From assembly GCA_018696395.1 (NCBI GenBank), contig JABHQR010000011.1:62001-126000 (forward strand): 64,000 nucleotides of DNA, given 5' to 3'. The notes beneath the pieces are model-generated. The model saw only the letters and a list, made by a program, of their open reading frames with translations. It searched no databases and had not been told where the DNA came from. Below, piece by piece: positions 29,446 through 50,788 of the stretch; the stretch's first letter is position 1; each line of letters opens with the position of its first letter. The stretch comes from an archaeon (GTDB lineage Archaea > Nanobdellota > Nanobdellia > Woesearchaeales > GW2011-AR9). The translations under genes and the position numbers were made by a program.

Positions 29446-30216
29446 ATGAGTAATACATTACCTAATTTATTTGATTCAGAAGTTTATGTTAAGAGAGAAT
29501 TTGATAGATTGAAATCTGAAGGTAAATTCCCCGAAAAAATAGTGGAACCAATTGATACTAGGTTATTGGGTGGTTTTAAAGAATGGGTTGCATGGCTTCC
29601 TTTTGGAGCATTAAGTCCAGGGACTCGTTTTCCACATAGGGGTTATGACTTTGCTGCATATTTAACAAAAAATGGTGTGTGTAGATTTAGTTTACCAAAA
29701 GAGCTTCCTGTAAGAGCAATTGCTGATGGGAAAGTATTGTTTACTGTTGAAAAAGGATACGCTTCTTCAATATATATTGATCATACCATTAGAAATTCTG
29801 AAAATCTTAAAAAAAGAAGAAAGTATGAGGGTTTAGTCTGTAATTATGGGCATGTTGAAACTTGTATTGATGAGGGTGATTATATTAAGCAAGGTCAAGT
29901 AATTGGCCATTTATATGGTGATGATGATTCTGAATTATTTTCAAGGTTAGTTCATTTACATTTTGATATTGAAATTATTAATAGTAATATGTCATTAAAT
30001 ACGTCATGCTTATTTCCTAACTTAGAAAAAAATAATGTTGATTCTAGGGGTAATCCTTATTTTAAATTAATCAAATCAGATGCCGAAATTTTACCTTCAA
30101 AAAGAAGGATTTTTGCAAATACAATCAATGCAACTTATTTTAAGCATGAACCTTATCAAGATATATCTCAACATTATGCTGAAACACATTTGGGTAAATG
30201 GGGGAAACTTTTTTAA
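29446..30216 (+). CDS. M23/LytM-like peptidase family protein
   Basis: PHRGYDFAA, ADGKV, NYGHVE, GQVIGHLYG, VHLHFDIE. Confidence 0.75.
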   Translation: MSNTLPNLFDSEVYVKREFDRLKSEGKFPEKIVEPIDTRLLGGFKEWVAWLPFGALSPGTRFPHRGYDFAAYLTKNGVCRFSLPKELPVRAIADGKVLFTVEKGYASSIYIDHTIRNSENLKKRRKYEGLVCNYGHVETCIDEGDYIKQGQVIGHLYGDDDSELFSRLVHLHFDIEIINSNMSLNTSCLFPNLEKNNVDSRGNPYFKLIKSDAEILPSKRRIFANTINATYFKHEPYQDISQHYAETHLGKWGKLF

Positions 30217-30252: not shown

Positions 30253-31083
30253 ATGACCTCATTAAAAATGAATTTGTCACAAATAAAAGAGTCTGTACTG
30301 AAAGAAATTAAACAAAGAACAAATTATGAATATGTGGAAGTTCTTAATAGGGCTAATTCTGCAATCTTATTATCTTTATCTGTATTAGGTCAGAAAGTGT
30401 TTTATCCAGAAGAAGGTGGGTGGATGACTTATCATAAATATGCCAAGAATCTTGGGAAAGAAGTTGTTTCTATCAAATGTCATGATGCTAGAATTGATTT
30501 AAATGATTTGAAAAATAGATTGGAAGAAAAATGTGTTTTTATTTATCATCCTTTAGGTGGTTATTTTGCCGAGCAGGATATTGAACAAATTTATAAAATC
30601 TGTAAAGAAAAAAATTGTTTAGTAATTATGGACGTTTCTGGAACAATCGGAACAAGATTATGTGATGGGAAATATGCTGATATCTGTTTAGGAAGTTTTG
30701 GTGATTGGAAATTAATTGATTATGGGCAAGGTGGGTTTATTTCGTTTCAAAATCCTAAATTGTTTAATCATTTTAAACCTTTATTTTCAGCAATGACTTT
30801 TCGAGGAGATTATGAAAAATTATTACATCATTTTAATATTCTTGATGGCCGGATCAAGTTTTTATTAGATAAGAGGACAGAGATTATTAATGATCTAAAA
30901 GAATTTGAAATTATTGGCAAAGATAATGAACTTGGATTTGTTGTTATAGTAGTGCCAAAAAGTGAAACAGATAGGTTAAAGATTGTGGCTTATTGTACGA
31001 AAAATAATCTTGAATATACGATGTGTCCAAGGGAAATTAGAATTAATAGGGATGCAGTTTCTATTGAATTGAAAAGGTTGTAA
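30253..31083 (+). CDS. PLP-dependent aminotransferase-like protein, short DegT/DnrJ/EryC1-like
   Basis: VIMDVSGTIGTR and GSFGDWKLIDYGQGGFISF (candidate PLP Lys). Confidence 0.65.
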   Translation: MTSLKMNLSQIKESVLKEIKQRTNYEYVEVLNRANSAILLSLSVLGQKVFYPEEGGWMTYHKYAKNLGKEVVSIKCHDARIDLNDLKNRLEEKCVFIYHPLGGYFAEQDIEQIYKICKEKNCLVIMDVSGTIGTRLCDGKYADICLGSFGDWKLIDYGQGGFISFQNPKLFNHFKPLFSAMTFRGDYEKLLHHFNILDGRIKFLLDKRTEIINDLKEFEIIGKDNELGFVVIVVPKSETDRLKIVAYCTKNNLEYTMCPREIRINRDAVSIELKRL

Positions 31084-31200
31084 TGTTGTTAATATTTTGT
31101 TATATTTTATGCAATTTTAACATGCTTCACAATCTTTTGTGCCACTAATCAGTGACAAATAACCAAAAGGTTTAAATATTCTGATATATTATAATAAATA

Positions 31201-31686
31201 ATGTTACAAGGAAATTTAAATGAAGCAAATAAATATTTTAACAAGGTTATTGATGATTCAAGTATATTCTCATGTATATGGGATTTGGGAAAAGCTATGA
31301 AATATGTTGGTGTTGAAAATTCTGGGGAAGATCAAAGATTAAAAGATCTAAGGTCAAAAATTTTGACAAAAGGAATTGAAACTGCAATTAGAAAAGAAGT
31401 TGTTCTTTTTGGAAATGCTATCGCTAGAAATGATATAAATACGGCAATGTTAATAATCAAAAATACTGAATATTGTAGGGATACTAACCTGGCAGAAGAT
31501 GGGAGATCTGATATTAATCGAAGATTAATGAACGGTGGATTAGGTGTTAATATCAATGTTGCAAGTGTTTACCAAAGAATGTTAGATAAAATGTATCAAA
31601 GAATTAATTTGCCTGCTTTAGCTAATCCTGAACATATGAAAGATCCAACCATGGGCACATATGTCTTAGAGTTAATTTTTGAATAA
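31201..31686 (+). CDS. Uncharacterised protein
   Basis: Intact ORF. Confidence 0.5.
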   Translation: MLQGNLNEANKYFNKVIDDSSIFSCIWDLGKAMKYVGVENSGEDQRLKDLRSKILTKGIETAIRKEVVLFGNAIARNDINTAMLIIKNTEYCRDTNLAEDGRSDINRRLMNGGLGVNINVASVYQRMLDKMYQRINLPALANPEHMKDPTMGTYVLELIFE

Positions 31687-31687
31687 T

Positions 31688-32905
31688 TCAATATCTATTA
31701 ATTGTTTTACCTAGTGTGATAAAATGGATATTACCTTGGAAACCTTTTTCTCTAGCAATTATACCTAAAGCCTTTGCTTGGGTTCCAGTAGTATATATGT
31801 CATCAAAAATGATCAAATTATTTGCATGAGATAAATAATCTAAATCTTCTTCTATGCCAATTGTTTCAAGATGATCATAGATAGTATTTCTGTTGTTTGA
31901 AGAATGTGATTCTCGGCAAGGGTGGACTCTTTCGAATATTCTGTCTGGGTAAAATTCATAATTTTGTTCTTCAGCAATAATTCCTGCTACTAAATTGTTA
32001 ACATCAGTTTTGTAACAGTAATGGGGGCAAGAGTTTGGAGATGCCATTACTTCTGTTTTTCCTTTTAAATTTAAATTGTTAACTAAATGATTTAGTCTAT
32101 GTTGAAATTTTGCCAAGTTAGTTTTTAAAGCGTACCTTTCATTTATGATTTTTCCATTATAAAAAAATTCTTCTTTAGCCCAACTTTCAATTTGGTCATG
32201 GGTGAAATTTTTTGTTTTCTTAAAACTTAGAACCCAGTTAGTAAACGGGTTTCTATTACCACCATTCCAAGGGAAATATTCTTCTAAAAAGTGATGTTCT
32301 ATTCCCGGATCATAATTTCCATCCATAAAAAAATCTTTATCAAATGGTACTGTTCTAGGTTGGTATTCTAATATGCCATTTGAAATATAACTTAATAAAT
32401 TTAAAAATTCATCTTGGGTATTAACAATCTTTCTTGCTTCTGCGTTAGCTAATTGTTGTTGCGATGAATAACCCCAAGTTACACCGATTGGTACTATTGA
32501 TACTTGATGTGCGTTAAGAATATCTTTTGCTGAATCACCAATTAAGTATGTTCTTTGTTTATGGATTCCAGATCCTTCAATAATCTTTTCTAATAATTCT
32601 TTGTTAGGTTTTTTAGCATTTCCAATAATTTGAACTTCGGGTAAGCTATGTTTTTTAATAATTGCTCTAGCGTAAGCTTCGGGAGAATTAGTATAAATAG
32701 TTAACTTGTGGTGTTTAGCAATTCTGTGGAGCATTATTTCTATTCTTCTGGAATAGGTGTCAGACCTAATCATATTAAGATTATTTTTTAAGTAATTTCT
32801 TCCAGCAGGATTTGTCAAGTAAGGTTGAAGGTTTTTTGTATCAACAATAGTTTCATCTAAATCAAGTATGAAATGTTTTTTTGGCATAGCAAATCTTTTT
32901 ACCAT
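31688..32905 (-). CDS. HAD-like hydrolase fused to phosphoribosyltransferase (ComF/ShosT-like)
   Basis: HAD motifs FILDLDETI, YTNSPE, KKPNKELLEK, LIGDSAKD; C-terminal PRTase loop LIIFDDIYTTGTQAKAL. Confidence 0.85.
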   Translation of the reverse strand: MVKRFAMPKKHFILDLDETIVDTKNLQPYLTNPAGRNYLKNNLNMIRSDTYSRRIEIMLHRIAKHHKLTIYTNSPEAYARAIIKKHSLPEVQIIGNAKKPNKELLEKIIEGSGIHKQRTYLIGDSAKDILNAHQVSIVPIGVTWGYSSQQQLANAEARKIVNTQDEFLNLLSYISNGILEYQPRTVPFDKDFFMDGNYDPGIEHHFLEEYFPWNGGNRNPFTNWVLSFKKTKNFTHDQIESWAKEEFFYNGKIINERYALKTNLAKFQHRLNHLVNNLNLKGKTEVMASPNSCPHYCYKTDVNNLVAGIIAEEQNYEFYPDRIFERVHPCRESHSSNNRNTIYDHLETIGIEEDLDYLSHANNLIIFDDIYTTGTQAKALGIIAREKGFQGNIHFITLGKTINRY

Positions 32906-33853
32906 TTAATCTATTTTCCCCGACATTTGATTTTTAATCACGTTAATTTTATTTTTATGTGTCTTGATCCAATTATAATCCTGACACATATTATTTTCTA
33001 AAACGTACAATGGTTTTTCTTGATCAATGCAATGTCTTACTGCATGTAAGGTGCCGCTACTATCACTTGCACGAATTACAACCACTCCGTGTGTTGATAA
33101 ACAAGATACAGTATAATTTCTTTCAACAAAACCTGTGCCTTTAAAAGGATTAAATCCAATTGGATATTGGGATAGAACTAAATGGTTGGTAGAGATATAC
33201 TCTTGAAGTGTTTGATTTTCTGCTGGAAAATATCTGTCTAAAGCAGTTCCAATAACAGCAATGGTTGACCCATGATCTTTGATGGCAGTTTTATGTGCCA
33301 ATGTGTCACAACCTTTTGCAAGACCACTTACAATACAATAACCTGTTCCTTCTGTGTTGAACTTTGCTTTTTCACCATAAATTAATCTCTCTAAGACAGA
33401 TTTACCGTGGATTATGTCTTTTTGTTCTTCTAATTTTCGTGTGCCTATAACTACCATTGATGGTCTTTTAAGTAATTCTAAATCTCCTCTATAATATAAA
33501 ACCGGTGGGGAGTCATCATATTTTTTTAATGTTTCTGGATATTCTTTATCTTTGATTGTAATGGTGCCAAAATTGAAACTTGTTTGGTCTAATCTTTTCA
33601 TGATTGTTTCAAATCCTGGAAATTGTGTTATTGGATCAGCAAATTGTCCAAACATATCTTTTGGTTTGTGTGCATAGAATGTATTTTCAAGATTACCGTA
33701 AGTTTCTAGCAAATTTCTTAAATGTTTATTTGATTTACGACTGATTCCTATCTTTTTAAGTTTAGGATTGTCTTTGCTAAGAATTAGGGCACAATGGTAT
33801 AACGATTCCCTTCTTGATTTATCATTGAACATAAAAATGTTTGTGCGCGTCAT
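32906..33853 (-). CDS. DprA/Smf-like protein
   Basis: YPETLKKYDDSPPVLYYRG, VVIGTRK, IVSGLAKGCDTLAHKTAI, TIAVIGTALDRYFPAENQTL, LSQYP; stop codon abuts next ATG. Confidence 0.9.
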   Translation of the reverse strand: MTRTNIFMFNDKSRRESLYHCALILSKDNPKLKKIGISRKSNKHLRNLLETYGNLENTFYAHKPKDMFGQFADPITQFPGFETIMKRLDQTSFNFGTITIKDKEYPETLKKYDDSPPVLYYRGDLELLKRPSMVVIGTRKLEEQKDIIHGKSVLERLIYGEKAKFNTEGTGYCIVSGLAKGCDTLAHKTAIKDHGSTIAVIGTALDRYFPAENQTLQEYISTNHLVLSQYPIGFNPFKGTGFVERNYTVSCLSTHGVVVIRASDSSGTLHAVRHCIDQEKPLYVLENNMCQDYNWIKTHKNKINVIKNQMSGKID

Positions 33854-33972
33854 ATTTTTAAGCTTTTATATTATATTTGATATAATCATGCTTGTGTGTT
33901 TGTATTTTAATATCTCCCGATATATCCACCACAATGAAAATTCTTATATAATCAGTTTGAAAATAGTTTAAT

Positions 33973-34284
33973 ATGGCAATATTTGAAGGGATGTATGGGC
34001 TTTTTACTTTATTCAATTATGGGCACACTATTAGTGGTAAAATAAAAAAAGAGCATTTTAAAAATGAAGTTAATTTCTCTAATTTAGAAAAATTGACTCT
34101 AGGTGGTTCTGTTTTGATTGGTATTGATGCGGTAATCACACCTTTATTTATTGGTGAATCTTTACATAATCTGTTGGGTGTCAATTTGGATTACAGTCAT
34201 GAACAAGGAATTATGTCATTAGAATTTTTAGGTGCTTATTCTGGTATGTTTTATCATGCTGCAAAAAATTTTAAACAAGTTTGA
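33973..34284 (+). CDS. Small uncharacterised protein, possible membrane protein
   Basis: Intact ORF. Confidence 0.45.
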   Translation: MAIFEGMYGLFTLFNYGHTISGKIKKEHFKNEVNFSNLEKLTLGGSVLIGIDAVITPLFIGESLHNLLGVNLDYSHEQGIMSLEFLGAYSGMFYHAAKNFKQV

Positions 34285-34378
34285 AATTAAATTATTTTTA
34301 ATAAATTAATAATGTGTTAGTTTTTTTCCAATATAACTTAAATAGTAATCTTTAAATACCTGACAAATTTAATTTTAC

Positions 34379-35728
34379 ATGATGGCAAACAAAATAATCC
34401 CAAATCAAAATAAGCAATTTGAAAAATCAATTAAAAATGTCAAAGTATTACATGATTTTTTAATGAGGGAATTTTATCAATCAAGAAAATTATTACATCT
34501 AATCTCTCATGCTAAGAAAGGTAATAAAAAATTAGCAAAAAAATGTTTAAAAGAATTAAGGGGTATGTTTGGTATCGAGAGGGTTGAAAGGCGTGAAGGA
34601 AGAGTTTTTAATTCAATGGTTACTACGGTAAAATCTTTACAAACTAAATATAAAAAAAAGTTCCCTGGTGAAGTAGAAAAAACTTTAAAATTATTAGAAC
34701 AAGCAAAGATATATCACAATTTTTTTGTTAAAACTCTTTCTCGTGGTGGTAAAATTGAGGTCATGTTAAAAGAGGCAGAAAAAGACGATTCTAAATTATC
34801 TGATGTTGTTAAAGTAATTGAGGATGAACTTAAAAAGTTTCCTTCTTTTGAAGGTGTATTAGGATCAATTGAATCTAGTTTAAACTCAGAATTAAAACAT
34901 TCTATGGTGGGCGAAGTTGATTTAGAACTAGAATTAGAAGTTAAGATTAAAGAGTTAGATGCTAAAATTGGCATATTACAAAAAGAATTAAAACAGGTCA
35001 GGTCAAGGTTTGGGTTTACTGAAACTTTTTTAGGTGGTATTTTCAGTAGTGATAAGGCGTCAGTTAAAAGAGAAAAAGAAATTATAAGTACGCTTTGGGG
35101 AACTTCTATTTTTCGTGTTGGTGAGGGGATAGAAGGGGAGATTAGTAAGCTTAGAAATAAGTTGAACAAAATTAAAATTGCAAATGGTGAGAAAATTCAT
35201 AATGGCCTAGTTCAGTTTGACGATATGTACATTGAAATTACTGATGCTAAGAAAAAAGCTGATTGGACTTTAAAATATGTCACTAATTATTTGAAATTGT
35301 TAGAAGGTACGCTTAGTTCTTTAAGTTTTTCAGAAGGTTTAGAAGTGGGTGATTTATTTAGTAAAAATAAATCTATTTCTATGGCTTCTTCTATGTCCAA
35401 TCTTAGTTCTCAGTCAATGTTAAACAATGTGGCTAAAGAAACTAAACAATTAAAATTAGAATTAAAAAATTTTGATCTATTTTTTGAAAAATCTGATGTT
35501 CCAGTTGTTGGTCTTTATGACAGTTTAGATTTGTGTGCGGATCTTTTAGGTGTTCTTTCATTTGATATTACTAGTATATTTACTTTAGATAATTTAAGTA
35601 AAAACAAGGCTAAAATTAGGAAGCTTAAAAATGCTGCAACGAAATTTAAGTTGCATATGGAAGATGAGTGTAACAGTTTTAATATCTTGGTTACTAAATT
35701 TCATAATTCGATTAAACATGGGTCATAA
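34379..35728 (+). CDS. Uncharacterised coiled-coil protein
   Basis: Long ORF, heptad-rich Lys/Glu composition. Confidence 0.6.
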   Translation: MMANKIIPNQNKQFEKSIKNVKVLHDFLMREFYQSRKLLHLISHAKKGNKKLAKKCLKELRGMFGIERVERREGRVFNSMVTTVKSLQTKYKKKFPGEVEKTLKLLEQAKIYHNFFVKTLSRGGKIEVMLKEAEKDDSKLSDVVKVIEDELKKFPSFEGVLGSIESSLNSELKHSMVGEVDLELELEVKIKELDAKIGILQKELKQVRSRFGFTETFLGGIFSSDKASVKREKEIISTLWGTSIFRVGEGIEGEISKLRNKLNKIKIANGEKIHNGLVQFDDMYIEITDAKKKADWTLKYVTNYLKLLEGTLSSLSFSEGLEVGDLFSKNKSISMASSMSNLSSQSMLNNVAKETKQLKLELKNFDLFFEKSDVPVVGLYDSLDLCADLLGVLSFDITSIFTLDNLSKNKAKIRKLKNAATKFKLHMEDECNSFNILVTKFHNSIKHGS

Positions 35729-35891
35729 TTTTTCATTATTTTTTCTTTTTTAAAAACAGGTGTTCTTTAACTTAAATATTTGATATAATTCAATACTTTT
35801 AATCAATTGAAACATTAATTGTTTATTAACTAACTATCAATACTTTAATTAATCGAAAAGAATATAAACTACTTCTTGCTTTTTCTTTATT

Positions 35892-36614
35892 ATGGAATCT
35901 ACAAATTATATTCAAAAAATAATCGATAAGAAAACAGATGATGCTGTTCATCGAAAATTTATCCGGTTTAGCATTGGCGAATTTCCTCGTGAAAAAATCA
36001 TTATCAAACAAATGGCTAAAAAGTTACAAATTCAAACTGGGTTTGAGTTGGCAATTGATCTTTATTTACTAACTGCAGATTTGTTAGTTAAAGAAGATGT
36101 TACAATTGAAGGTAAGGGCGTTGTGTTTTCTACCACTAAAGGTTTGGAAAAAGATATTGAAAGTGCTGGGTTTGAATTGATAGATAAAAAAGGTAAAAAG
36201 TATAACATTAAATTTGAAATGCCTGTATCTAAATTTAGGGAAGCGGTAGTTTCATTATCTCAATATTTTATGCTATTAAATTATTCTGTGGCAGGTATTA
36301 CTATGAAAGTTAAAGGATCATTACCTAAACCTGGTAAAATTGTGGAAAAATTTGCTACATTTAAAGTTGATAATAAATATGCTACTCCAATACTTGAAAA
36401 CTTTTTGTTTGATATCGATAAAAGTGAATATTCCAAAGCAAAATCAATTGATGTCGACATCACTTTTATTATTGATGGTGCGGAAATACCTAAAGAATAC
36501 CAGGACGATTTTGCTTTAGCAAGATTACATGCTAAGAAAAAAGGTAAGATTAAACGGGTAATCACTGTTGATGCTAATGTTGTAAAAGAGCATGAGTTTG
36601 ATTTCTGTGTTTGA
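35892..36614 (+). CDS. Uncharacterised protein
   Basis: Intact ORF with TATA-like AATATAAA upstream. Confidence 0.6.
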   Translation: MESTNYIQKIIDKKTDDAVHRKFIRFSIGEFPREKIIIKQMAKKLQIQTGFELAIDLYLLTADLLVKEDVTIEGKGVVFSTTKGLEKDIESAGFELIDKKGKKYNIKFEMPVSKFREAVVSLSQYFMLLNYSVAGITMKVKGSLPKPGKIVEKFATFKVDNKYATPILENFLFDIDKSEYSKAKSIDVDITFIIDGAEIPKEYQDDFALARLHAKKKGKIKRVITVDANVVKEHEFDFCV

Positions 36615-36694: not shown

Positions 36695-38953
36695 ATGGCA
36701 AGTATAAAAAAATTGTTAGAATCAAAAGAGAAAATTGTCGTAACTGCAGCATTACCTTACGCAAATGGAGAAATGCATGTGGGGCATGTCTTAGAACATA
36801 TTCAAGTAGACATCTATACTAGATTTTTAAGATTGATTGGAAAAGATGCAATATTAATTTGTGCTTCTGATATGCATGGTACTCCTATTGAAGTTAATGC
36901 AAAGAAAGTAGGTAAACAACCAGAAGAATATGCTTTACCTTTTTGCAAAAAACATCAAAAAGATTTTGCTAAATATTTAGTGAAATATGATAATTATTAC
37001 AAAACTCATTCTCCTGAAAATAAAGAAATGGCTTACTATTTTTACAAAATTTTGAAAGATAAAGGTTACATTTACATTAAAGAAATTCCTACTGTGTTTT
37101 GTTCTTCTTGTAACCGTCATTTGCCTGATCGGTTTGTGAAAGGTATTTGTCCTCATTGTAATGAAGAAGATCAGTACGGTGATATCTGTGAAAAATGTTC
37201 AACTGCACTGAAAGGGATAGATTTAGTTAACCCTAAATGTACTTTATGTGGTAACGAACCTGAACATAAAAATAGTTCTCATTACTTTTTCAAGTTAAAA
37301 GATTTTTCTTTAGAATTACAAGCATGGTTTAATGATGATAATTCTTTGATACAAAAAGAAATTAAAAATTGGATCACTAACTGGATAAAAGGCGGGTTAG
37401 ATGATTGGTGTATCTCTCGTGATGAACCTTATTTTGGGTTTGAAGTTCCGGACTGTTTAGATGAAATAGGTGAGAAAAAGTATCTATATGTGTGGTTAGA
37501 TGCACCTATTGGATACATTTCTTCAACAGTAAATTATTGTGATAAAATGTCCAGTGAAAATAAAGATCTTAATTGGGAAGATTATTGGAAGTCTGACAAA
37601 GGGCAAGTATTACATTTCATCGGTAAAGATATTGCTTATTTCCATTACTTGTTTTGGCCAGCTGTATTGAAAGGTGCTGGTTTTCCATTACCAGTATTAA
37701 CTACTCATGGTTTTGTTAATTTGAACAGTTCTAAAATGAGCAAATCTCGTGGAAACTATTTTTCTGCTGCAGAATTTTTTGAATTGTTTGGAGCGGAAGG
37801 ATTAAGATTTTATTATGCTAATCGGTTGGATCGTTCAATTGTAGACTTAGATTTAAGTTTAGATGATTTTGAAGCTGTGAACAATAAAGTTTTAATTGCT
37901 AATTTGGGTAATTTTTGTTATCGGAGTTTAAGTTTTGCTGCTAAGAATTACTCTCAGGGGTTTGATAAAGTTGCTAATGGTGACGATGAACAGAAATTGG
38001 TTGAGGAGTTTAATAAGTTAGTTCATAGTCCGAATGGTGTTAAAGATTGTTATTATGGACAAAATTTTAAAGGTGCAGTTAAACTTATTTTACAAATTTC
38101 TGATCTGGGTAATGTTTATTTTCAAAAATTAGAACCTTGGAAGAAAAGGGAAAGTGAGGAAGGTGAAAAACTGGTTTGTGAGAAAATTGCTTTTATATTA
38201 AATCTGGCCCGGAACTTATCAATTTTAATTAAACCAATTTTACCAGAATTTTCTGCTAAAATTGAAAAATCATTCGGTGTAGAATCTGTTGTTGGTAAGG
38301 GTTGTGATGGGTTACAATGGGAAGATATCAATTTTGATTGGACTGGCCATATTGAAATGGTAGATAAATTAGTTGATCGGATTGATGCTAAAATTGCAAA
38401 AGAAAGATTGAATGTTGTAACTGGTGGAGATGTTAAAAGTGATTCTAAAAAAGAGAATTGTTTACCTTTAAGTTTACGAGTGGGTCAAGTTGTAGAAATT
38501 AAAAATCATTCCAATGCAGAAAAATTGTATGTTTTGCAAGTAGATTTTGGTGGGGAGATCGGTAAAAAACAAATAGTTTCAGGGTTACGTGGTCATTTTG
38601 AACCTAACGATCTTTTATTTCACAAATTTTTATTTTGTATCAACTTACAACCCGTTAAACTGCGTGGTGAAATGAGTGAAGGGATGATACTTGTTGCTGA
38701 AGAAAAGGATGAAGGTGGTGAAAAGCTTACCTTGCTTGAATTGAAACCAAGCCAGTTTGAAAATGTTGAATTGGGTGAATTTGCTACTTTTGGTGATTTA
38801 ATTGTTTGTGAAGATGAAATTGATTACAAACAATTCTTGAAAGTTAAAATGAAAATTTTGGGTTGTAAAGTTGTTTGGAAAGAGAAAAGTCTTAATGTTG
38901 CTGGGAAAGAATTAGGATTGCCTGATGTAAGTGATGGTGCTAAGATCAGTTAA
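36695..38953 (+). CDS. metG: Methionyl-tRNA synthetase with C-terminal tRNA-binding (EMAPII-like) domain
   Basis: ALPYANGEMHVGHVLEH, zinc knuckles CSSC/CPHC/CEKC/CTLC, KMSKSRGN, C-terminal LRVGQVVEIKNHSNAEKLYVLQVDFG. Confidence 0.97.
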   Translation: MASIKKLLESKEKIVVTAALPYANGEMHVGHVLEHIQVDIYTRFLRLIGKDAILICASDMHGTPIEVNAKKVGKQPEEYALPFCKKHQKDFAKYLVKYDNYYKTHSPENKEMAYYFYKILKDKGYIYIKEIPTVFCSSCNRHLPDRFVKGICPHCNEEDQYGDICEKCSTALKGIDLVNPKCTLCGNEPEHKNSSHYFFKLKDFSLELQAWFNDDNSLIQKEIKNWITNWIKGGLDDWCISRDEPYFGFEVPDCLDEIGEKKYLYVWLDAPIGYISSTVNYCDKMSSENKDLNWEDYWKSDKGQVLHFIGKDIAYFHYLFWPAVLKGAGFPLPVLTTHGFVNLNSSKMSKSRGNYFSAAEFFELFGAEGLRFYYANRLDRSIVDLDLSLDDFEAVNNKVLIANLGNFCYRSLSFAAKNYSQGFDKVANGDDEQKLVEEFNKLVHSPNGVKDCYYGQNFKGAVKLILQISDLGNVYFQKLEPWKKRESEEGEKLVCEKIAFILNLARNLSILIKPILPEFSAKIEKSFGVESVVGKGCDGLQWEDINFDWTGHIEMVDKLVDRIDAKIAKERLNVVTGGDVKSDSKKENCLPLSLRVGQVVEIKNHSNAEKLYVLQVDFGGEIGKKQIVSGLRGHFEPNDLLFHKFLFCINLQPVKLRGEMSEGMILVAEEKDEGGEKLTLLELKPSQFENVELGEFATFGDLIVCEDEIDYKQFLKVKMKILGCKVVWKEKSLNVAGKELGLPDVSDGAKIS

Positions 38954-39114: not shown

Positions 39115-41562
39115 ATGTTGAAAAAGGGGCAAGTTACAGTATTTATGATTATAGGAATTCTAATTCTTGCTATTATGGGTGTTATGTTGTATGTCAGCAA
39201 CACATTTATTACTGAAGAATTTGCAGCTGAAGGTCAACCAATAGTTGATACTGTTACTCAAGAGTTTGTTGCAATTCAAGGATATACTGAAACTTGCTTA
39301 TACAGCACAGCTCAAAATGGTTTGATTCTTCTTGGCCAACAAGGTGGCTACATTTATCCAACTTCATTAGGCGATTTCTCAATAACAAATCCAACAGATT
39401 CAATTGGGATCTCTATTGATCCTTTACTAATCCCATACTGGCATTACAATTCTGAATATAATGGTAATCCTAGCGTTTCATTGGCTAGTTTACAACCTTC
39501 ACTTTATGATTCTGATTTAGATAAAGATTATGCTGGTGGTGAGTATATGAGTATTGAAGCTCAACTTGGTCGTTATATTGAAGAGGAGATTAATGATTGT
39601 TTAAACGATTACGAAGTTTTCAGTGGTCAGGGATTTAATGTTTCAGCAGATTTTTCTGGAATGCAAGCTACTGCTAGGGTTTGGGACAGCGGTTATGTTG
39701 ATTTTATTTTAGAACTTGATTTAAGTGCGGTTAAAGGTGGTGCTCAACAAGAAATGACCACTTTTTATGCGAGCCATGATTTAGATTTAGCACACATTTA
39801 CGATATTGCTAACCAGATAACTGAAGCAGAACAGAACTATACCTTTTTAGAAAATCAAGCTTTGGAGTTGCTGAGTATTTATTCACGTTTAGATTCAGAT
39901 TTTTTAGCGCCAATGTCTTCAATGGATGTTGGTGATACCTCAGATAGTGTTACTTGGTCAGCTACTGAAATTAAATCTAAGGTTATTGGTTTGTTAAGTT
40001 CATATGTTCCTGTGTTAAGATATTATGGGAGTGAAAATTTTATGCGTTATGAATATTCTGATGATGAACTGTTAACTGACTTATATCAACAAATATCTGA
40101 TAATATGGTAGTTCCATTAGGTGGTGCTGAAGATTTAGGTGTAAGTTTTAGTTATTTTTCATGGGAACCTTACTTGAGTATGAATGGTGGCCAAGAAGAA
40201 ATTGAACCGAGTGGGATGGTAGTTACCAGTCCTTTTGATGTTGTTCCATTTAAGTTTGGTTTTTTAAATTATTATAACACTTACGATTTAAGTTATCCTG
40301 TACTTGTAACAATTGAAGATGATGGAGCTTTCAAAGGTGAAGGTTACACTTTTAATCTTGCATTAGAATCAAACATAATTAATAATATCCCTGCTGAATC
40401 TACTGAAAGTTTACCAATTCCAACAGTTTCATCTAACAAGGCAAGTTTGGCTTGTGATGAAGAACAAAGAAATACTGAACTAATTCAAACTATCGTGGTT
40501 GATGCTTATACTAATGAACCTATTGAAATGGTGGATGTAGTATTTGAACTTCCTGGATTTGACAGTTGTTATATGGGTGAAACTGATAATTTAGGAAGTT
40601 TAGAAGATAATTATCCTTCAGCTTATGGTGGGGTACTTGAATTGTCACATGATGATTATTTAACAACTGAATACTTGATAGATACTAATTTCTTTAAAGA
40701 GTCTGGTGGACTTTATGGGTATTCAATTGCTGGATTAGATTATCAAGTATTAATGATGTATCAAGAACAAGAATTAGAAGTTAGTATTGATGGTTTGTTT
40801 TTGAGAAAATGTATCACTCCAAAAGTTTGTATTAGTAAGTGGAATTATAGGCAAGATGATTGTAATGAAGATGCTGACCAAATCTGTTTCAGTAATGGTA
40901 ATGTTTCAATGTTAGGTTCAGCATTCTTTTCAGATTCAGTTTTAACTTTAACAGCTAATGGTAGTATTACCAGAAGTAACGAATATTATGCTAACTCAGG
41001 TTCAATTGAATTTTTACCTGAATATTATCAAGCAACATTAATTTTGGAAAGAGTTAGTCCTCTTGTAGAAGATTATGGTAGTGCTCAATATACTCAGTTT
41101 GTTAATTTAGAGGGAAATGAAACAAACACAATTACATTAGTTCCTGGGATTTACAAAGTAGATTTGAATGTAATGATTAATGACGATGTTTTAATATATG
41201 AGGATGATCGTTGTTTATACGATGATGAAGAAGATGATTATACTTGTAATAATATGACTGGTTTAACATTAGACAATTATGTTGGTGGATCTTATTCATG
41301 GGATACAGAAGATACTTACTGGTATGTTTATCCTGAAGATTTATACAGTTCAGACGAATTAACTTTCCATGCATTATTGTATGATATTAATGATGCACCT
41401 CAATCAACAATAAGTTATGATGACGATAATGATGAAATTGAAATTAATGTTCAAACGCATGAAGATTTGATGGTTTCTGGATATATCTCTGAAATCGCTG
41501 CGATGGAAAATGCTCGAGCAACTCTTGAACCAGAATGGAGTTCAAGTTGGATTGAGGAATAA
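39115..41562 (+). CDS. Large secreted/membrane-anchored protein with KGQVTVF N-terminal signal
   Basis: MLKKGQVTVFMIIGILILAIMGV then ETCLYSTAQNGLILLGQQGGYIY, paralogous to 50789-53278. Confidence 0.75.
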   Translation: MLKKGQVTVFMIIGILILAIMGVMLYVSNTFITEEFAAEGQPIVDTVTQEFVAIQGYTETCLYSTAQNGLILLGQQGGYIYPTSLGDFSITNPTDSIGISIDPLLIPYWHYNSEYNGNPSVSLASLQPSLYDSDLDKDYAGGEYMSIEAQLGRYIEEEINDCLNDYEVFSGQGFNVSADFSGMQATARVWDSGYVDFILELDLSAVKGGAQQEMTTFYASHDLDLAHIYDIANQITEAEQNYTFLENQALELLSIYSRLDSDFLAPMSSMDVGDTSDSVTWSATEIKSKVIGLLSSYVPVLRYYGSENFMRYEYSDDELLTDLYQQISDNMVVPLGGAEDLGVSFSYFSWEPYLSMNGGQEEIEPSGMVVTSPFDVVPFKFGFLNYYNTYDLSYPVLVTIEDDGAFKGEGYTFNLALESNIINNIPAESTESLPIPTVSSNKASLACDEEQRNTELIQTIVVDAYTNEPIEMVDVVFELPGFDSCYMGETDNLGSLEDNYPSAYGGVLELSHDDYLTTEYLIDTNFFKESGGLYGYSIAGLDYQVLMMYQEQELEVSIDGLFLRKCITPKVCISKWNYRQDDCNEDADQICFSNGNVSMLGSAFFSDSVLTLTANGSITRSNEYYANSGSIEFLPEYYQATLILERVSPLVEDYGSAQYTQFVNLEGNETNTITLVPGIYKVDLNVMINDDVLIYEDDRCLYDDEEDDYTCNNMTGLTLDNYVGGSYSWDTEDTYWYVYPEDLYSSDELTFHALLYDINDAPQSTISYDDDNDEIEINVQTHEDLMVSGYISEIAAMENARATLEPEWSSSWIEE

Positions 41563-41625
41563 TGTTAAAAAGACAAGAAATTTATGTTTAAATAAAAAAA
41601 TTAAAATTTTAAAAAAAATGATAAG

Positions 41626-44600
41626 ATGGATTTAGAAAGTTTGAACAGGCCAATTGAAAGGCAAAATGTTATTGAAAATGAATCAACTAATTGGGAATCT
41701 GCTCAAAGTATAAGGTCGAAAAAGATTTGGTCTTTTGTGGGTTTATTTATTATATGTTTAGTTGTAAGTTTACCAATCTATTCTGCTAATGCAATGGCAA
41801 CATCACTTTCAGTTACATCCAATACAGGTAATAGTAATTATGAAGGTTACCTTAATGCTGAAGGTGATACTTGGAATTTAGAAGCTACCATCACTGATTA
41901 TGAATCGGATTTTGGTGAAACTGCGATTAGTCCAGATCAAGTTATTGCTGAAATTGGAAGTTCTCAAGTGGAATTTAATTCTTGTTCAGCAAGTTCTGGA
42001 AATACAGTCTGTAAATTTCAAAGTGTACTTGAAGATGGTATTGCAGAAGGTACTTACAGTTTTGATGTTGTCATTTATGATATGGTTGAAGGTTCTAATA
42101 GTAGTGATTTAGGAGGTATGTTGGCATCAGATTCTGAAACTATTACTGCAGATGGTTCTGAACCAAGTATTTCTATTAGTGACATATATCAAATGGACGG
42201 TAATGTTTATCTTGACTTTACTGTTGAAGATCAACCTGATGGATTATGTTCTGGGTTAAGTGAAATTGAAATTCTTGATTCTGAAACTGGAACCTCACTA
42301 GAAACTATTAGTTTAAGTGAAGAAGATTGGTTAGGTGTTTGTGAATTTGATTATATTAATGATGGAGATAATGCTGGTGTGTTATCTGTTGAACTTGATG
42401 GTGAAGGTACTAGATATATTAAAGTTCAAGCAACAGACTTTTTAGGTCATACAGAAACCAGTTCCGCTTACAGTTTCGCAACAGACTTTGTTGCACCGGT
42501 GATTCAAACTGGAACTTTAGCACTTCTAGATTTTGGCGCTTATGTTGGTGAAGAAATTCAAGCAAGTGATGTTGCAATTAACATTACTGAATGTGACGAA
42601 ATTGCAGATGTTACTGCAACTTCTGACGATATGGAATTTTATAGTCAATCTGCTGATTGTGACGAGATTGATGATGAAGAATGTATCTGGGAATGTATCT
42701 GGGAAGATATTTCAATTAATGCTGATGGCAGTTCAGTTTCTGCTGAAATCACTGCAGTTGACGAAGCTGGCAATTCTGCAAGTTCAACTGTAAGTTCAAC
42801 TTTTGATCTTGATTCAGATGCTCCTGAAGTAATATATTTCGGATCTCAGTATCAATATGATGATTATAGTTACGTTCCTGCTGATGGCGATTCTGTGTTA
42901 TACATGCAAATTTCTGAAAGTGGTTCAGGGATTGACGAAGATAGTATCGCATTAAATTTGTACGCGTTCGGCGAAAGTGATTGGCAAGAACCTGACGTTT
43001 GTGAAAATTCTACTTCAGGAAGTTATGATTATGAATGTCAATGGGAAATTGACGATGCTGGAACTGATGGCATGACTACTACTGAAGAAGTTAATTTAAG
43101 GTATGTTAGTGATAAAGTTGGTAATGATGGAACTTTAACATCTTATGAAATTATTGTTGATGGTGTTCAACCGCAAATTACAGAATTGGAAGTGTATGGT
43201 TTTTCTGCTATCGGTCAGAAAGATTATTTTCAAAGTAATGATGATTTAGTAATTGAAATGACTGTTACTGAAACTTCTGGATTAGCAGTTTATGTTGACG
43301 TTAACGATATTGTTATGGACGCTGAAAATAAGTATCTGTACGACGATTTGAAGTATGGCAAGAACATGACTGGTTGGGTAGAGTTTGATGAAAGTAGTTG
43401 TTCAAGAGATGAAGAAACTATTGATTGGGAATGTTCATTCAGTGTAGATTCTATTAAAAGTGGGTACGATAGTCATGCAAATTTTGAAGTGTTGATTATG
43501 GACACTGCTGGTAATTCTGCTAACTGGGAATATCTTGACAGTAACGATGATGCTCAGAACGTTATCGGTGGAAGTGAAGGAGAATATTCTATCGAGATAT
43601 ATGCTTTGGACGAAGAAACTCAGCCAGACTTTTGGGAACAGTCAAGTGGTTCTTCAACATTGAATAGTGCGTTTGTAGATTTAGATATTGTAGGATTAAC
43701 TTATCCGCAAATTGCTCTTACTACTAGTTTAAGGTCAGACAATGATGCTAAAGCTACTTTAATTGAATTGGATGAATGTTATCCAAGTGAAGATGAAACT
43801 GGATATACCCCTACAATTTCAAGATCATTATTGTTTGGCGGTAGTGCTTCTGGTGAGCCAGATTCTAGTCCTGACTTAACAATCATTTTAGAATTTGAAT
43901 CTTTCGCAGCTTCAGAAGTGGTAGATTTAGGGGCATTAGCTGAAGATGGTGATGATGAGTTTGATGGTATTGATTTAGAGTATACTTGTCAGATGAGGAT
44001 TTATTCTGTGCTTGACGATACTGCATTAAGTTATGCAGAAACTCAAGAAATTGATTTAGTAATACCTTTTGAATATTCAGAAATGGGTGCATTGGACGAA
44101 AATGTTGATTTGTTAATGTACGAAGCTGTAGATAAGGGTTGGTTCAGATTTTTAAACGTTATGGGTAAGATTCAGAAAATAATTAATTGGATCCAGTGGG
44201 GTGGTAAAATTATCACTGCATTTATGACGTTAATAAATGTTATAGATATTATTCAGATTGGATTTGATAAAACTAGGGTATTAAGTAGTGGTGGTTATTT
44301 CTTTGCATCAAATGCTTGTATAGTTTCTAATGTAGGGATTAAAGAAAATTTAATCAATTTTTTTGACGATTTTGGAGTTGTATTTCAAATATTGTCTTGT
44401 AACCCTAGTCCTACTAAAATAGATGGTGGTACTGGAGCTGCAACTGCAGTACATAATTATCAACAAGGTGTACTTGAAATTTGGAAAGTTGCTAAAGGCG
44501 ATTGGATTGGAAATGCTTTCGCTGATAAAATTGGTGATTCTGGAGAAAAAACAGCTTCAGGAGAAGCTTGGAGTGATATTGTTTCAATAACTGCTAACAC

Positions 44601-45231
44601 TGGAAGTGCAAGATTAGATGATAATATAATTACTTCATTTATAGGATTGTGTATCCCTGGGATATTTTATCAATTTGATCAGATGAGACAGATTGAATGT
44701 ACTTATATCAAATGCCTTAAAGAAAATGTAGCTAATGGAATTACTACAGTTGACATATGTCAGAAAACTAAAGGGTACTTATATTGTAAATATATCTTGG
44801 GTGAAGTAATGGAAATGTTACCTTTTGACATATTAACTATGGGAGTTCAATTCTTAATGAATATAGTTAAAAATCCAACAGGAGTATTTTTTGCAGTATT
44901 AAATAAATTGTGTTCTCTAGAAGGTTGTTTGTTACCTGTGGAAGGTGGTCTTTGGGTAAAAATTTGTGGGTTTTTTGGTTATTTTTACAAATTATTAGAT
45001 ATTGCTAATGATGTTGTTGGTGTTGTACAAGGATTTAAAGTTACTCAATATGATGTCTGTGCAGAAGCTGGTGTCCAAGAAATGTTGGATGAAGTTAATG
45101 CAAATAAAGCGGGTGAAGAAGAAGCTGAATCAGTAACTACTGACGATTTGGATAGTAGTTCAAGTGATGGTGATTCAAGTAGTAGTGATAGTTCAGGTGA
45201 AGATGAATCAAGCGATAGTGGGGATGAATAA
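41626..45231 (+). CDS. Giant surface protein with Ig-like repeats and Ser/Asp-rich C-terminal tail
   Basis: N-terminal TM; repeated Ig-like modules (DSDAPEVIY, DEAGNSASS, DTAGNSANW); tail SSSSDGDSSSSDSSGEDESSDSGDE. Confidence 0.7.
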   Translation: MDLESLNRPIERQNVIENESTNWESAQSIRSKKIWSFVGLFIICLVVSLPIYSANAMATSLSVTSNTGNSNYEGYLNAEGDTWNLEATITDYESDFGETAISPDQVIAEIGSSQVEFNSCSASSGNTVCKFQSVLEDGIAEGTYSFDVVIYDMVEGSNSSDLGGMLASDSETITADGSEPSISISDIYQMDGNVYLDFTVEDQPDGLCSGLSEIEILDSETGTSLETISLSEEDWLGVCEFDYINDGDNAGVLSVELDGEGTRYIKVQATDFLGHTETSSAYSFATDFVAPVIQTGTLALLDFGAYVGEEIQASDVAINITECDEIADVTATSDDMEFYSQSADCDEIDDEECIWECIWEDISINADGSSVSAEITAVDEAGNSASSTVSSTFDLDSDAPEVIYFGSQYQYDDYSYVPADGDSVLYMQISESGSGIDEDSIALNLYAFGESDWQEPDVCENSTSGSYDYECQWEIDDAGTDGMTTTEEVNLRYVSDKVGNDGTLTSYEIIVDGVQPQITELEVYGFSAIGQKDYFQSNDDLVIEMTVTETSGLAVYVDVNDIVMDAENKYLYDDLKYGKNMTGWVEFDESSCSRDEETIDWECSFSVDSIKSGYDSHANFEVLIMDTAGNSANWEYLDSNDDAQNVIGGSEGEYSIEIYALDEETQPDFWEQSSGSSTLNSAFVDLDIVGLTYPQIALTTSLRSDNDAKATLIELDECYPSEDETGYTPTISRSLLFGGSASGEPDSSPDLTIILEFESFAASEVVDLGALAEDGDDEFDGIDLEYTCQMRIYSVLDDTALSYAETQEIDLVIPFEYSEMGALDENVDLLMYEAVDKGWFRFLNVMGKIQKIINWIQWGGKIITAFMTLINVIDIIQIGFDKTRVLSSGGYFFASNACIVSNVGIKENLINFFDDFGVVFQILSCNPSPTKIDGGTGAATAVHNYQQGVLEIWKVAKGDWIGNAFADKIGDSGEKTASGEAWSDIVSITANTGSARLDDNIITSFIGLCIPGIFYQFDQMRQIECTYIKCLKENVANGITTVDICQKTKGYLYCKYILGEVMEMLPFDILTMGVQFLMNIVKNPTGVFFAVLNKLCSLEGCLLPVEGGLWVKICGFFGYFYKLLDIANDVVGVVQGFKVTQYDVCAEAGVQEMLDEVNANKAGEEEAESVTTDDLDSSSSDGDSSSSDSSGEDESSDSGDE

Positions 45232-45697
45232 AAAGATGAGTAAAATCAGTTGGTGTTGGAAACAGAAAAATGGGTTTGAAATAATTGAACCTAACACTAA
45301 CCTTAGTAATGCTTATCTAATCGAAGCAAGAACAACATTGAAAAAAATAGTACAAGATGGTAATCGAACTAATTACGATAAATGGGACCTTATCATGTCT
45401 TATTATTCATGTTACAATGCTTTATATTCAATATTGATGAAAGCTGGAATTAAATGTGAATTACATTCTTGTACGATTGAAATGATGAAATTTATTGAGT
45501 CATTTACTGATGAAGATTATGAATTTTTAATGAATTTAAAAGATAAAAGGATTGATGTACAATATTATTTGAAAGATTACAAAATTAATGAAAATCAGAT
45601 TAAAAAAGTTAAATTATTTGTCCATAAGTGTGAAGTTATATTGAACAAAACTGATTTGTCTAAACTAAGAGGTGAACTTGATGGTACAAAAAAATAG
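45224..45697 (+). CDS. HEPN-domain protein, putative toxin of HEPN-MNT pair
   Basis: Helical four-helix-like sequence (NAYLIEARTTLKKIV...MSYYSCYNALYSILMKAGIK); start reassigned to ATG overlapping upstream stop; followed by MNT gene. Confidence 0.7.
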   Translation: MNKKMSKISWCWKQKNGFEIIEPNTNLSNAYLIEARTTLKKIVQDGNRTNYDKWDLIMSYYSCYNALYSILMKAGIKCELHSCTIEMMKFIESFTDEDYEFLMNLKDKRIDVQYYLKDYKINENQIKKVKLFVHKCEVILNKTDLSKLRGELDGTKK

Positions 45698-46274
45698 ACA
45701 TATGTCTAAAAAAATAGACATAACCTCTTTATACTTGTCTGATTATAATTTATATTTTTCAGGGAGAGAAATTGGACGTTTAGTAAAGATTAACCACCAA
45801 ACTGCTATGAACCTCTTAAAACAGTTAGTTAAAGAAAAAGTTTTGACAATAGTTAAGAAAGGTAGAAGTAATTTATATTATTTGAACCTTGACAGTTTTG
45901 AATGTACTTATTATCTTCAAATTGCTGAAATTGTTAAAGCAAGAAATGCTTTAAGTAATGTTGAATTAAAATTAGTTATTGAAAAAATTGTTAGTTTATG
46001 TGAAACTGTAATTGTGTTTGGAAGTTTTTCTTCTGGAAAACAGAAAAACAGTTCAGACATTGACTTGGTTGTAGTATCTCCTAGAAGTAAAGTTAAAATT
46101 CAGGACGAAATAAAGATTTTTCCAAGAGAAATTAATATTGAATATGTTACTTGGAACAGTTTTGCAAAATCGTTAAATAAAAAGAATCATTTAGCTATAG
46201 AGATTAAGAAAAATCATTTGGTGTATGGGAATGTTCATGGACTAGTTGAAATTTATAAGGATTATCAAAAATGA
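45681..46274 (+). CDS. wHTH plus minimal nucleotidyltransferase, putative antitoxin of HEPN-MNT pair
   Basis: VIVFGSFSSGKQKNSSDIDLVVVS (GSx..GxxxxxSDIDL); N-terminal HTH-like IGRLVKINHQTAMNLLKQLVKEKVL. Confidence 0.85.
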   Translation: MVQKNRHMSKKIDITSLYLSDYNLYFSGREIGRLVKINHQTAMNLLKQLVKEKVLTIVKKGRSNLYYLNLDSFECTYYLQIAEIVKARNALSNVELKLVIEKIVSLCETVIVFGSFSSGKQKNSSDIDLVVVSPRSKVKIQDEIKIFPREINIEYVTWNSFAKSLNKKNHLAIEIKKNHLVYGNVHGLVEIYKDYQK

Positions 46275-48718: not shown

Positions 48719-48753
48719 CATTATGAATAACTTGTAGATCTTAATTATAAAAA

Positions 48754-49632
48754 ATGAAAAAGTTTAATCTCAGTTTTGTCAAATCAAGTATAAGTAATTA
48801 TTTCAACCTACTCAGAGAACTGAAATCTGATAAGTTCATGAAAACTTTTAGCATAGACTTTATTTCAATTTTATTCTTTTCATTATTAGCAACAATTTAT
48901 GGGTTTTATTTGAACAAAATTTCTGCAAATTTGTTAGAAACATGGGATTTAACTAATCTGAATATTAATATTTTTGAAAAAAGTGCCGAAGAGTTAGAAT
49001 TGTTTTCTAATGATTTACAGTTTTTTTTAATATTTTTTCTAATTGGATTAACAGTAATTATAATCTCTGGATTAGTGATTTACACTTATTCTAGGTATCG
49101 AATTTGGAAAGAATTATCTCCCACTAAAAAACATAAACATTACTTTTTAAAATGGATTGTAATGGTCCTTTCTTTAGGGTTAATTATAATCTCATTCTTA
49201 TTACTTTTATCATCTTTAATTGTAATGATTAGAGAATTTTTATTATTATTCTATTACTCCGAAATATATTATTATGTTGCACAACTAATTTCCAGTTTTA
49301 TAGGATTATATCTAATGGTTATGTTTATCAATGTAATGTTTGCAATCAAGTTCAGTTTTAATCAATCGTATAAAGTGTGGGATTCAATTGGTAAAGGGTT
49401 TGGATTGATTAGAAATAATCTCAAAAAATCTCTTAAAATTTGCTTATTTGAATGGTTAACATTAATTTTGTTAACTGTTATAATTTTTTTACCTTTAAAT
49501 TATTTCTTTACTTTAAGTGAGTTAGTTAGTTATCTAATCAAGTTAATCATTTTTGTACTTATACTTGCTTGGTACAGAATAGTCTTTGTAAAACATATTG
49601 TCAAAAAAGAAATTCATCATAAAAAAGAATAA
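48754..49632 (+). CDS. Multi-pass membrane protein
   Basis: About six hydrophobic segments; downstream of surface-protein operon. Confidence 0.65.
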   Translation: MKKFNLSFVKSSISNYFNLLRELKSDKFMKTFSIDFISILFFSLLATIYGFYLNKISANLLETWDLTNLNINIFEKSAEELELFSNDLQFFLIFFLIGLTVIIISGLVIYTYSRYRIWKELSPTKKHKHYFLKWIVMVLSLGLIIISFLLLLSSLIVMIREFLLLFYYSEIYYYVAQLISSFIGLYLMVMFINVMFAIKFSFNQSYKVWDSIGKGFGLIRNNLKKSLKICLFEWLTLILLTVIIFLPLNYFFTLSELVSYLIKLIIFVLILAWYRIVFVKHIVKKEIHHKKE

Positions 49633-49668
49633 ACTGAAGAATAAAAAATAAAAATTAAAATAATATCA

Positions 49669-50643: not shown

Positions 50644-50788
50644 TTTAATTTTTCCCCAAATTTACATATAATCAGAACATAATTCTTCTAATAACAAGTT
50701 ATAACCAAAATTATATTTAAATATTATTGTAATATCTTATCTAGTCAACAAAAAACATTTATAAGCATTAATAATATCTTATTAATAG

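What the first reader, a model, noticed from the sequence alone, without database searches (positions are those of the whole stretch)
31688..33853. ShosTA-like / ComF-DprA-like module: DprA protein directly coupled to a HAD-phosphoribosyltransferase fusion
Seen: DprA-type Rossmann gene whose TAA (32906-32908) abuts the ATG (32905) of a gene with all four HAD motifs and a C-terminal PRPP loop (DDIYTTGTQ). Known: ComF PRTases pair with DprA in bacterial competence, and ShosTA anti-phage toxin-antitoxin systems combine a PRTase toxin with a DprA-like antitoxin. Inference: this archaeal locus is a conflict or nucleotide-sensing module; with no other competence gene visible here, defence/TA is at least as plausible as DNA uptake.
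Basis: partly seen in the sequence, partly recalled or inferred. Interest (0 to 1): 0.8.

Follow-up and report, generated by a model that had tools for sequence, protein, structure and literature searches.

The report
Archaeal ShosTA-like DprA/HAD-phosphoribosyltransferase operon
A tiny-genome archaeon carries, as an inserted accessory cassette, a DprA-like gene coupled to a phosphatase-phosphoribosyltransferase fusion gene, the same layout as the bacterial ShosTA anti-phage toxin-antitoxin system but with an apparently intact phosphatase domain that the one ShosT of known structure has lost.

Summary
Window 33853-32906(-) encodes a DprA-like protein; its TAA abuts the ATG of 32905-31688(-), a fusion of a HAD phosphatase (all catalytic motifs intact) and a phosphoribosyltransferase (PRPP loop DDIYTTG). 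The ShosTA-like reading is largely supported, although I found the PADLOC ShosA and ShosT models too loose to prove it. Better evidence: (i) the solved phage-P2 ShosT has the same HAD-PRTase architecture, but with degenerate HAD motifs; (ii) in this phylum DprA is rare (16/371 genomes), and every checkable copy abuts a PRTase or RecQ-PRTase gene; (iii) the window DprA groups with PRTase-coupled plasmid/phage DprAs, not housekeeping DprA; (iv) the pair sits in a 4.8-kb insertion between genes that adjoin in relatives; (v) ComEC is absent. HAD, PRTase and DprA also recur together on bacterial plasmids and prophages as fused, split and permuted genes, including a HAD-DprA fusion. The archaeal DprA lineage differs from the bacterial HAD-linked one, so the archaeal combination was probably assembled separately. 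Most likely a ShosTA-type toxin-antitoxin/defence module with an added phosphatase step. Toxicity and defence are untested.

The parts
32906..33853 (-). DprA-like protein (ShosA-like), 315 aa: divergent N-terminus of about 95 aa, DprA/SLOG Rossmann domain about residues 97-293, no long C-terminal extension
   Evidence: tree
31688..32905 (-). HAD-PRTase fusion (ShosT-like), 405 aa; start codon directly abuts the DprA stop
32380..32905 (-). HAD phosphatase domain (about residues 1-175) with intact motifs I-IV (D15/D17, T72, K99, D124/D128)
   Evidence: AlphaFold pLDDT about 75-86 over residues 50-140
31688..32251 (-). PRTase domain (about residues 219-405) with PRPP loop DDIYTTG at residues 368-374
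31084..35891 (.). 4.8-kb accessory insertion between two genes that adjoin (about 4-30 nt) in relatives; also holds ORFs 31201-31686(+), 33973-34284(+), 34379-35728(+)
30253..31083 (+). conserved left flank: DegT/aminotransferase-like gene
35892..36614 (+). conserved right flank: 240-aa protein, followed by MetRS-like ORF 36695-38953

Best explanation
A ShosTA-type toxin-antitoxin/anti-virus module acquired as an accessory cassette by a Woesearchaeota-like archaeon. The DprA-like protein (ShosA role) is translated first and holds in check, or repairs the harm done by, the HAD-PRTase effector (ShosT role). When invading DNA or a stalled fork changes the DprA-bound state, the PRTase domain consumes PRPP or modifies nucleotides (as reported for ShosT), damaging the purine pool and DNA synthesis and stopping infected cells. 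Here the HAD domain is predicted to be a live phosphatase that takes a phosphate off the PRTase product, a nucleotide or a polynucleotide end, giving a two-step effector; in the solved P2 ShosT this step has decayed. Shown: genes, motifs, pairing, insertion, phylogeny. Inferred: toxicity, neutralisation, trigger, HAD substrate.
For: Same architecture and gene order as P2 ShosTA, whose ShosT/ShosA are solved. Foldseek: the ShosT entries 8zvc/8zvd/8zvb (E 8e-7 to 4e-6) align over 454-465 columns, i.e. both domains; the other top-50 hits are HAD enzymes, plus MtlD which contains a HAD. Pair conserved in G027. In the phylum DprA occurs in 16/371 genomes, and all checkable copies of that sample lie within -28 to +13 nt of a PRTase or RecQ-PRTase gene. 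The window DprA falls in a 99/97-supported clade with DprAs of Burkholderia phage Mana, E. coli and Leptolyngbya plasmids, a viral contig and two archaea, most of them PRTase-coupled. Inserted between genes that adjoin in relatives. HAD + PRTase + DprA recur on mobile plasmids and prophages. Published ShosTA: protects against T7 and lambda (PMC9122126); ShosT acts on purine metabolism, ShosA binds DNA (Pu et al. 2025, read only as cited in PMC12593503).
Against: No functional data. PADLOC ShosA scores housekeeping E. coli Smf as highly as the window protein, and ShosT rings in all 14 control genomes, so those hits prove little. Direct profile comparison of the archaeal HAD-PRTase with P2 ShosT is not significant. 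The window DprA is outside the P2-ShosA clade. No other defence gene was found among ten large window proteins; flanks are housekeeping. The AlphaFold model is mediocre (pLDDT 59.7).
Confidence: 0.62

Rival explanations
1. A DNA-uptake or recombination pair (ComFC-DprA type): the PRTase hands incoming single-stranded DNA to DprA.
For: ComFC of Campylobacter and S. pneumoniae interacts with DprA and H. pylori ComFC has a PRPP loop (PMC9005727); DprA and PRTase are coupled here.
Against: No ComEC (PF03772) in the 98.9%-complete genome, while the same search rings in 11 of 14 controls. No 4-Cys zinc finger in the sequence; extra HAD domain; patchy distribution and insertion.
Confidence: 0.07
2. 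A PRTase + HAD pair makes a nucleotide-derived signal (as proposed for Ter systems) that the SLOG-type Rossmann domain of the DprA-like protein senses; not a classical toxin.
For: Ter operons pair PRTases and HAD phosphoesterases as signal-making enzymes (PMC7824862). HAD, PRTase and DprA recur in several pairings, including a HAD-DprA fusion.
Against: PF15609 (PRTase_2) hit is far below cut-off (11.9 vs 28.8 bits). The characterised relatives ShosT and RqlH are reported toxic on their own.
Confidence: 0.15
3. A metabolic or repair operon (nucleotide salvage with a DprA-like ssDNA protein), not a conflict system.
For: Composition is native to the genome (GC about 0.30-0.32). HAD relatives include phosphoglycolate phosphatases and, among viral structures, polynucleotide 3'-phosphatases and 5'-nucleotidases.
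Against: Present in only two sampled genomes; inserted in a conserved gene pair; relatives on plasmids and prophages.
Confidence: 0.13

Closest known systems
ShosTA of P2-like phages (Peduovirus P24C9; PADLOC PDLC03012/PDLC02997; PDB 8zvb-8zvd, 9vzo)
   Same: Two-gene operon, DprA-like first, HAD-PRTase second, 424 vs 405 aa, PRPP loop kept.
   Different: P2 ShosT HAD is degenerate (motif I FSIAD in place of DxD, motif IV GRSxxD), the archaeal one intact; about 18% identity; DprA from a different lineage.
Burkholderia phage Mana type DprA + PRTase
   Same: Nearest DprA clade (99/97); DprA-then-PRTase order; PRTase matches ShosT (E 1.2e-41).
   Different: PRTase of 225 aa with no HAD domain.
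Plasmid/prophage HAD-PRTase-DprA loci (S. fredii, Bradyrhizobium, Psychrobacter, IMG/VR L074-L078; phrog_16932)
   Same: HAD-PRTase fusion with intact HAD motifs beside DprA.
   Different: DprA belongs to another clade that includes P2 ShosA; most carry a C-terminal cysteine-rich zinc-ribbon-like tail that the archaeal protein lacks.
RqlHI / PsyrTA
   Same: DprA-like antitoxin and toxic PRTase domain.
   Different: PRTase fused to a RecQ-like helicase; no helicase in the window. Two genomes of the phylum have that form (L065, L066).

Membership tests
ShosTA | DprA-like gene coupled to a PRTase gene | tested here: met
   zero-gap pair, conserved in G027
ShosTA | toxin = HAD-like + PRTase with PRPP loop (architecture of solved ShosT) | tested here: met
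   HAD intact here, degenerate in P2
ShosTA | discriminating match to ShosT/ShosA models | tested here: inconclusive
   hits E 1.6e-11 and 2.4e-57, but the ShosA model scores E. coli Smf 3.5e-58 and ShosT rings in 14/14 controls; the window gene has 47 bits vs 26 for the genome's other hit
ShosTA | DprA-like partner outside housekeeping DprA | tested here: met
   p-AU 0.014 against grouping with housekeeping DprA
ShosTA | DprA-like partner in the same clade as P2 ShosA | tested here: not met
   p-AU 0.006 for all HAD-linked DprAs together; 0.044 with long branches removed. It groups with the PRTase-only Mana type, whose PRTase PADLOC also calls ShosT. This fails the narrow P2-type membership, so it is filed as ShosTA-like, not as a P2-type ShosTA
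ShosTA | toxicity, antitoxin action, anti-phage activity | not testable with these tools
   needs experiments
ComFC-DprA (competence) | ComEC channel in the genome | tested here: not met
ComFC-DprA (competence) | N-terminal 4-Cys zinc finger on the PRTase | tested here: not met
   absent from the 405-aa sequence; feature from PMC9005727
RqlHI/PsyrTA | RecQ-like helicase fused to the PRTase | tested here: not met
   no helicase domain
Ter-type PRTase/HAD | PRTase_2 (PF15609) family membership | tested here: not met
   11.9 bits vs cut-off 28.8

The most novel reading that the evidence does not exclude
DprA-coupled PRTase effectors exist in a widespread form with three activities, in which a live HAD phosphatase processes the PRTase product (as a HAD-PRTase, PRTase-HAD or HAD-DprA fusion, or as separate genes). 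The archaeal locus assembled this independently of the bacterial lineage, and the crystallised ShosT is a decayed member.
Probability: 0.35. Interest if true: 0.7.

Novelty: new variant of a known kind. Interest (0 to 1): 0.52.

Why it matters
It extends the ShosTA plan to DPANN archaea. It also shows that the HAD domain, whose catalytic residues are lost in the one solved ShosT, is intact in the archaeal protein and in the other DprA-linked HADs compared. That makes a direct question testable: what does a phosphatase do next to a toxic phosphoribosyltransferase and a DprA-like sensor? It further suggests that in this archaeal phylum DprA is a conflict-system part and not a competence protein.

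Tried and rejected
PADLOC hits as proof of ShosTA: rejected after controls. Competence: rejected (and sequence). Ter-type PRTase: below cut-off. AlphaFold on a 2-row alignment: pLDDT 48, not used; the 5-row model was used only for fold search. HAD-domain tree as proof of independent fusion: win+G027 fell on the side of the generic HADs, but a constrained tree with all DprA-linked HADs together is not rejected (p-AU 0.40), so the independence claim rests on DprA and weakly on the PRTase tree. Close relatives in the GTDB contig collection: only the G027 locus; in viral contigs none with the narrow archaeal queries. hhalign of A1 with P2 ShosT: not significant. The primary ShosTA mechanism paper (Pu et al. 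2025) is not held, so its findings are second-hand. A rough binomial figure for chance adjacency used an assumed PRTase frequency and is not relied on.

Full report
OBSERVATION. Both ORFs are real and placed as stated. The DprA-like gene runs 33853-32906(-); its TAA is followed at once by the ATG of the 405-aa gene 32905-31688(-). A second in-frame ATG lies at codon 7. The first protein is a DprA family member (PF02481 E 1.6e-49), the only one in the 1.38-Mb genome. The second has HAD families above Pfam cut-offs in its N-terminal half and a PRTase with loop DDIYTTG at its C-terminus. All HAD motifs are intact and are shared with the only close relative.

CONSERVATION OF THE PAIR. Among 96 relatives only G027 (same family) has the full-length fusion, 35% identical. 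A GTDB contig scan found one locus, in a Candidatus Woesearchaeota MAG, with the same sequence as the G027 locus. There too a DprA-like gene (38% identical) lies just upstream. The G027 copy has one in-frame TGA near the C-terminus with conserved sequence beyond it: a recent nonsense change or a sequencing error. In 371 genomes spread over the phylum the fusion was found nowhere else with full length.

DPRA IN THIS PHYLUM IS A PRTASE PARTNER. DprA occurs in 16 of 371 genomes. I read the neighbourhoods. Twelve have a separate ShosT/PsyrT-like PRTase gene, two a RecQ-PRTase gene (RqlH/PsyrT type), one is the window, and one (G291) is cut by the contig end; G027 adds one more. Apart from G027 (84 nt) the distances are -28 to +13 nt. 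The PRTase assignments come from PADLOC/Pfam and are weak for G296 (E 0.03).

CONTROLS ON THE NAME. The PADLOC hits look decisive (ShosA E 2.4e-57, ShosT E 1.6e-11) but are not. The ShosA model gives E. coli Smf 3.5e-58 and B. velezensis DprA 1.5e-66, and the ShosT model rings in all 14 control genomes. The window PRTase does stand out from the genome's other hit (47 vs 26 bits).

COMPARISON WITH THE TESTED ShosTA. The P2-like phage pair (L032) that PADLOC models as ShosA/ShosT is the one with solved structures. Its ShosT is itself HAD + PRTase, in the same gene order. Its HAD catalytic residues are gone (motif I FSIAD, motif IV GRSxxD), while the window keeps them. In Foldseek against the PDB, the ShosT entries are the only top-50 hits of HAD + PRTase make-up; the rest are HAD enzymes, plus MtlD, which contains a HAD. 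The model is mediocre (pLDDT 59.7), so this supports architecture only; direct profile comparison is not significant.

A WIDER HAD-PRTASE-DPRA ASSOCIATION. From tblastn on plasmids and scans of viral contigs and their annotation or ORFs: HAD-PRTase fusions beside DprA in S. fredii, Bradyrhizobium, Psychrobacter and five viral contigs (two with an integrase-sized neighbour gene, not checked by profile); a reversed PRTase-HAD fusion beside DprA in Priestia; a HAD-DprA fusion in Deinococcus; separate PRTase, DprA and HAD genes in S. meliloti, R. leguminosarum, Segatella, Hymenobacter and a viral contig; and DprA with a 1110-aa HAD-PRTase-DUF559-helicase on E. coli/Klebsiella plasmids. The HADs compared keep the catalytic motifs; L078 is cut by its contig end before motif I. 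Such permutation is strong evidence that the three activities work together.

PHYLOGENY. In the DprA tree the bacterial HAD-linked DprAs, including P2 ShosA, form one clade (95/95; 98/95 with long branches removed). The window and G027 are elsewhere, in a 99/97 clade with Burkholderia phage Mana, an E. coli plasmid, a viral contig, a Leptolyngbya plasmid and archaea G260/G212, whose partner PRTases where identified have no HAD. One clade of all HAD-linked DprAs is rejected (p-AU 0.006; 0.044 without long branches); grouping with housekeeping DprA is rejected (0.014); monophyly of the archaeal DprAs is rejected (0.00025), so the genes have probably moved between domains. The HAD tree is inconclusive (p-AU 0.40); the PRTase tree weakly puts the window with the Mana side. 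Independent assembly of the archaeal combination is therefore likely but not proven.

CONTEXT. In relatives an aminotransferase-like gene and a 240-aa gene adjoin (about 4 nt in G008, 27 nt in G036, 30 nt in G003); in the window 4.8 kb separate them, holding the pair on the opposite strand plus three ORFs of unknown function. GC is native. ComEC is absent. No PADLOC hit was found in ten other large window proteins.

MECHANISM. Reported for ShosTA: protection against T7 and lambda (PMC9122126); ShosT as PRTase and pyrophosphatase upsetting the purine pool, with ShosA binding DNA and countering it (Pu et al. 2025 as cited in PMC12593503; not read directly). RqlH toxicity lies in its PRTase domain and RqlI physically interacts with it (PMC4670107). 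By homology the window pair is most likely an effector (PRTase) restrained or countered by a DprA-like partner that reads DNA state. The intact HAD suggests a second step, dephosphorylation of the product. Its substrate is unknown; family neighbours are phosphoglycolate phosphatases, nucleotidases and polynucleotide 3'-phosphatases. Genes, motifs, pairing, insertion and phylogeny are shown; toxicity, trigger and substrate are inferred.

Noticed in passing
L003:1486-2688 (G027): In-frame TGA near the C-terminus of the HAD-PRTase with conserved sequence continuing behind it: recent nonsense mutation of an effector, or sequencing error.
   Followed up: partly
L052-L066: In the sampled genomes of this archaeal phylum every checkable DprA gene abuts a PRTase or RecQ-PRTase gene, so DprA there looks like a conflict-system part.
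   Followed up: yes
L070:3007-4425 (Deinococcus wulumuqiensis plasmid pDrdI): Single 472-aa protein fusing an intact HAD phosphatase to a DprA domain.
   Followed up: partly
L026:4054-8348 (E. coli plasmid p1585m1_B): DprA followed by a 1110-aa HAD-PRTase-DUF559-helicase protein; homologues on Klebsiella/Raoultella plasmids are annotated as RecQ helicase.
   Followed up: no
L072:2983-3504 (Cyanobacterium aponinum plasmid): HAD of the DprA-linked kind directly after csx18-cas1-cas2, without annotated DprA nearby; its motif IV has lost the first Asp (GVQEDD).
   Followed up: no
window 34379-35728: 449-aa protein with weak, sub-threshold PrlF-antitoxin-like hits (E 0.0015), inside the same 4.8-kb insertion.
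   Followed up: no
window 29446-30216: M23 peptidase between the M50 peptidase and the aminotransferase gene; not seen at that place in the relatives read.
   Followed up: no
window 39115-53278: Four very long ORFs (815, 1201, 815, 829 aa) without Pfam or PADLOC match.
   Followed up: no
PADLOC models PDLC03961 and PDLC03962 (no window position): ShosA model scores housekeeping DprA as highly as ShosA-like proteins; ShosT model rings in all 14 control genomes: surveys using them without the operon rule may over-call ShosTA.
   Followed up: partly
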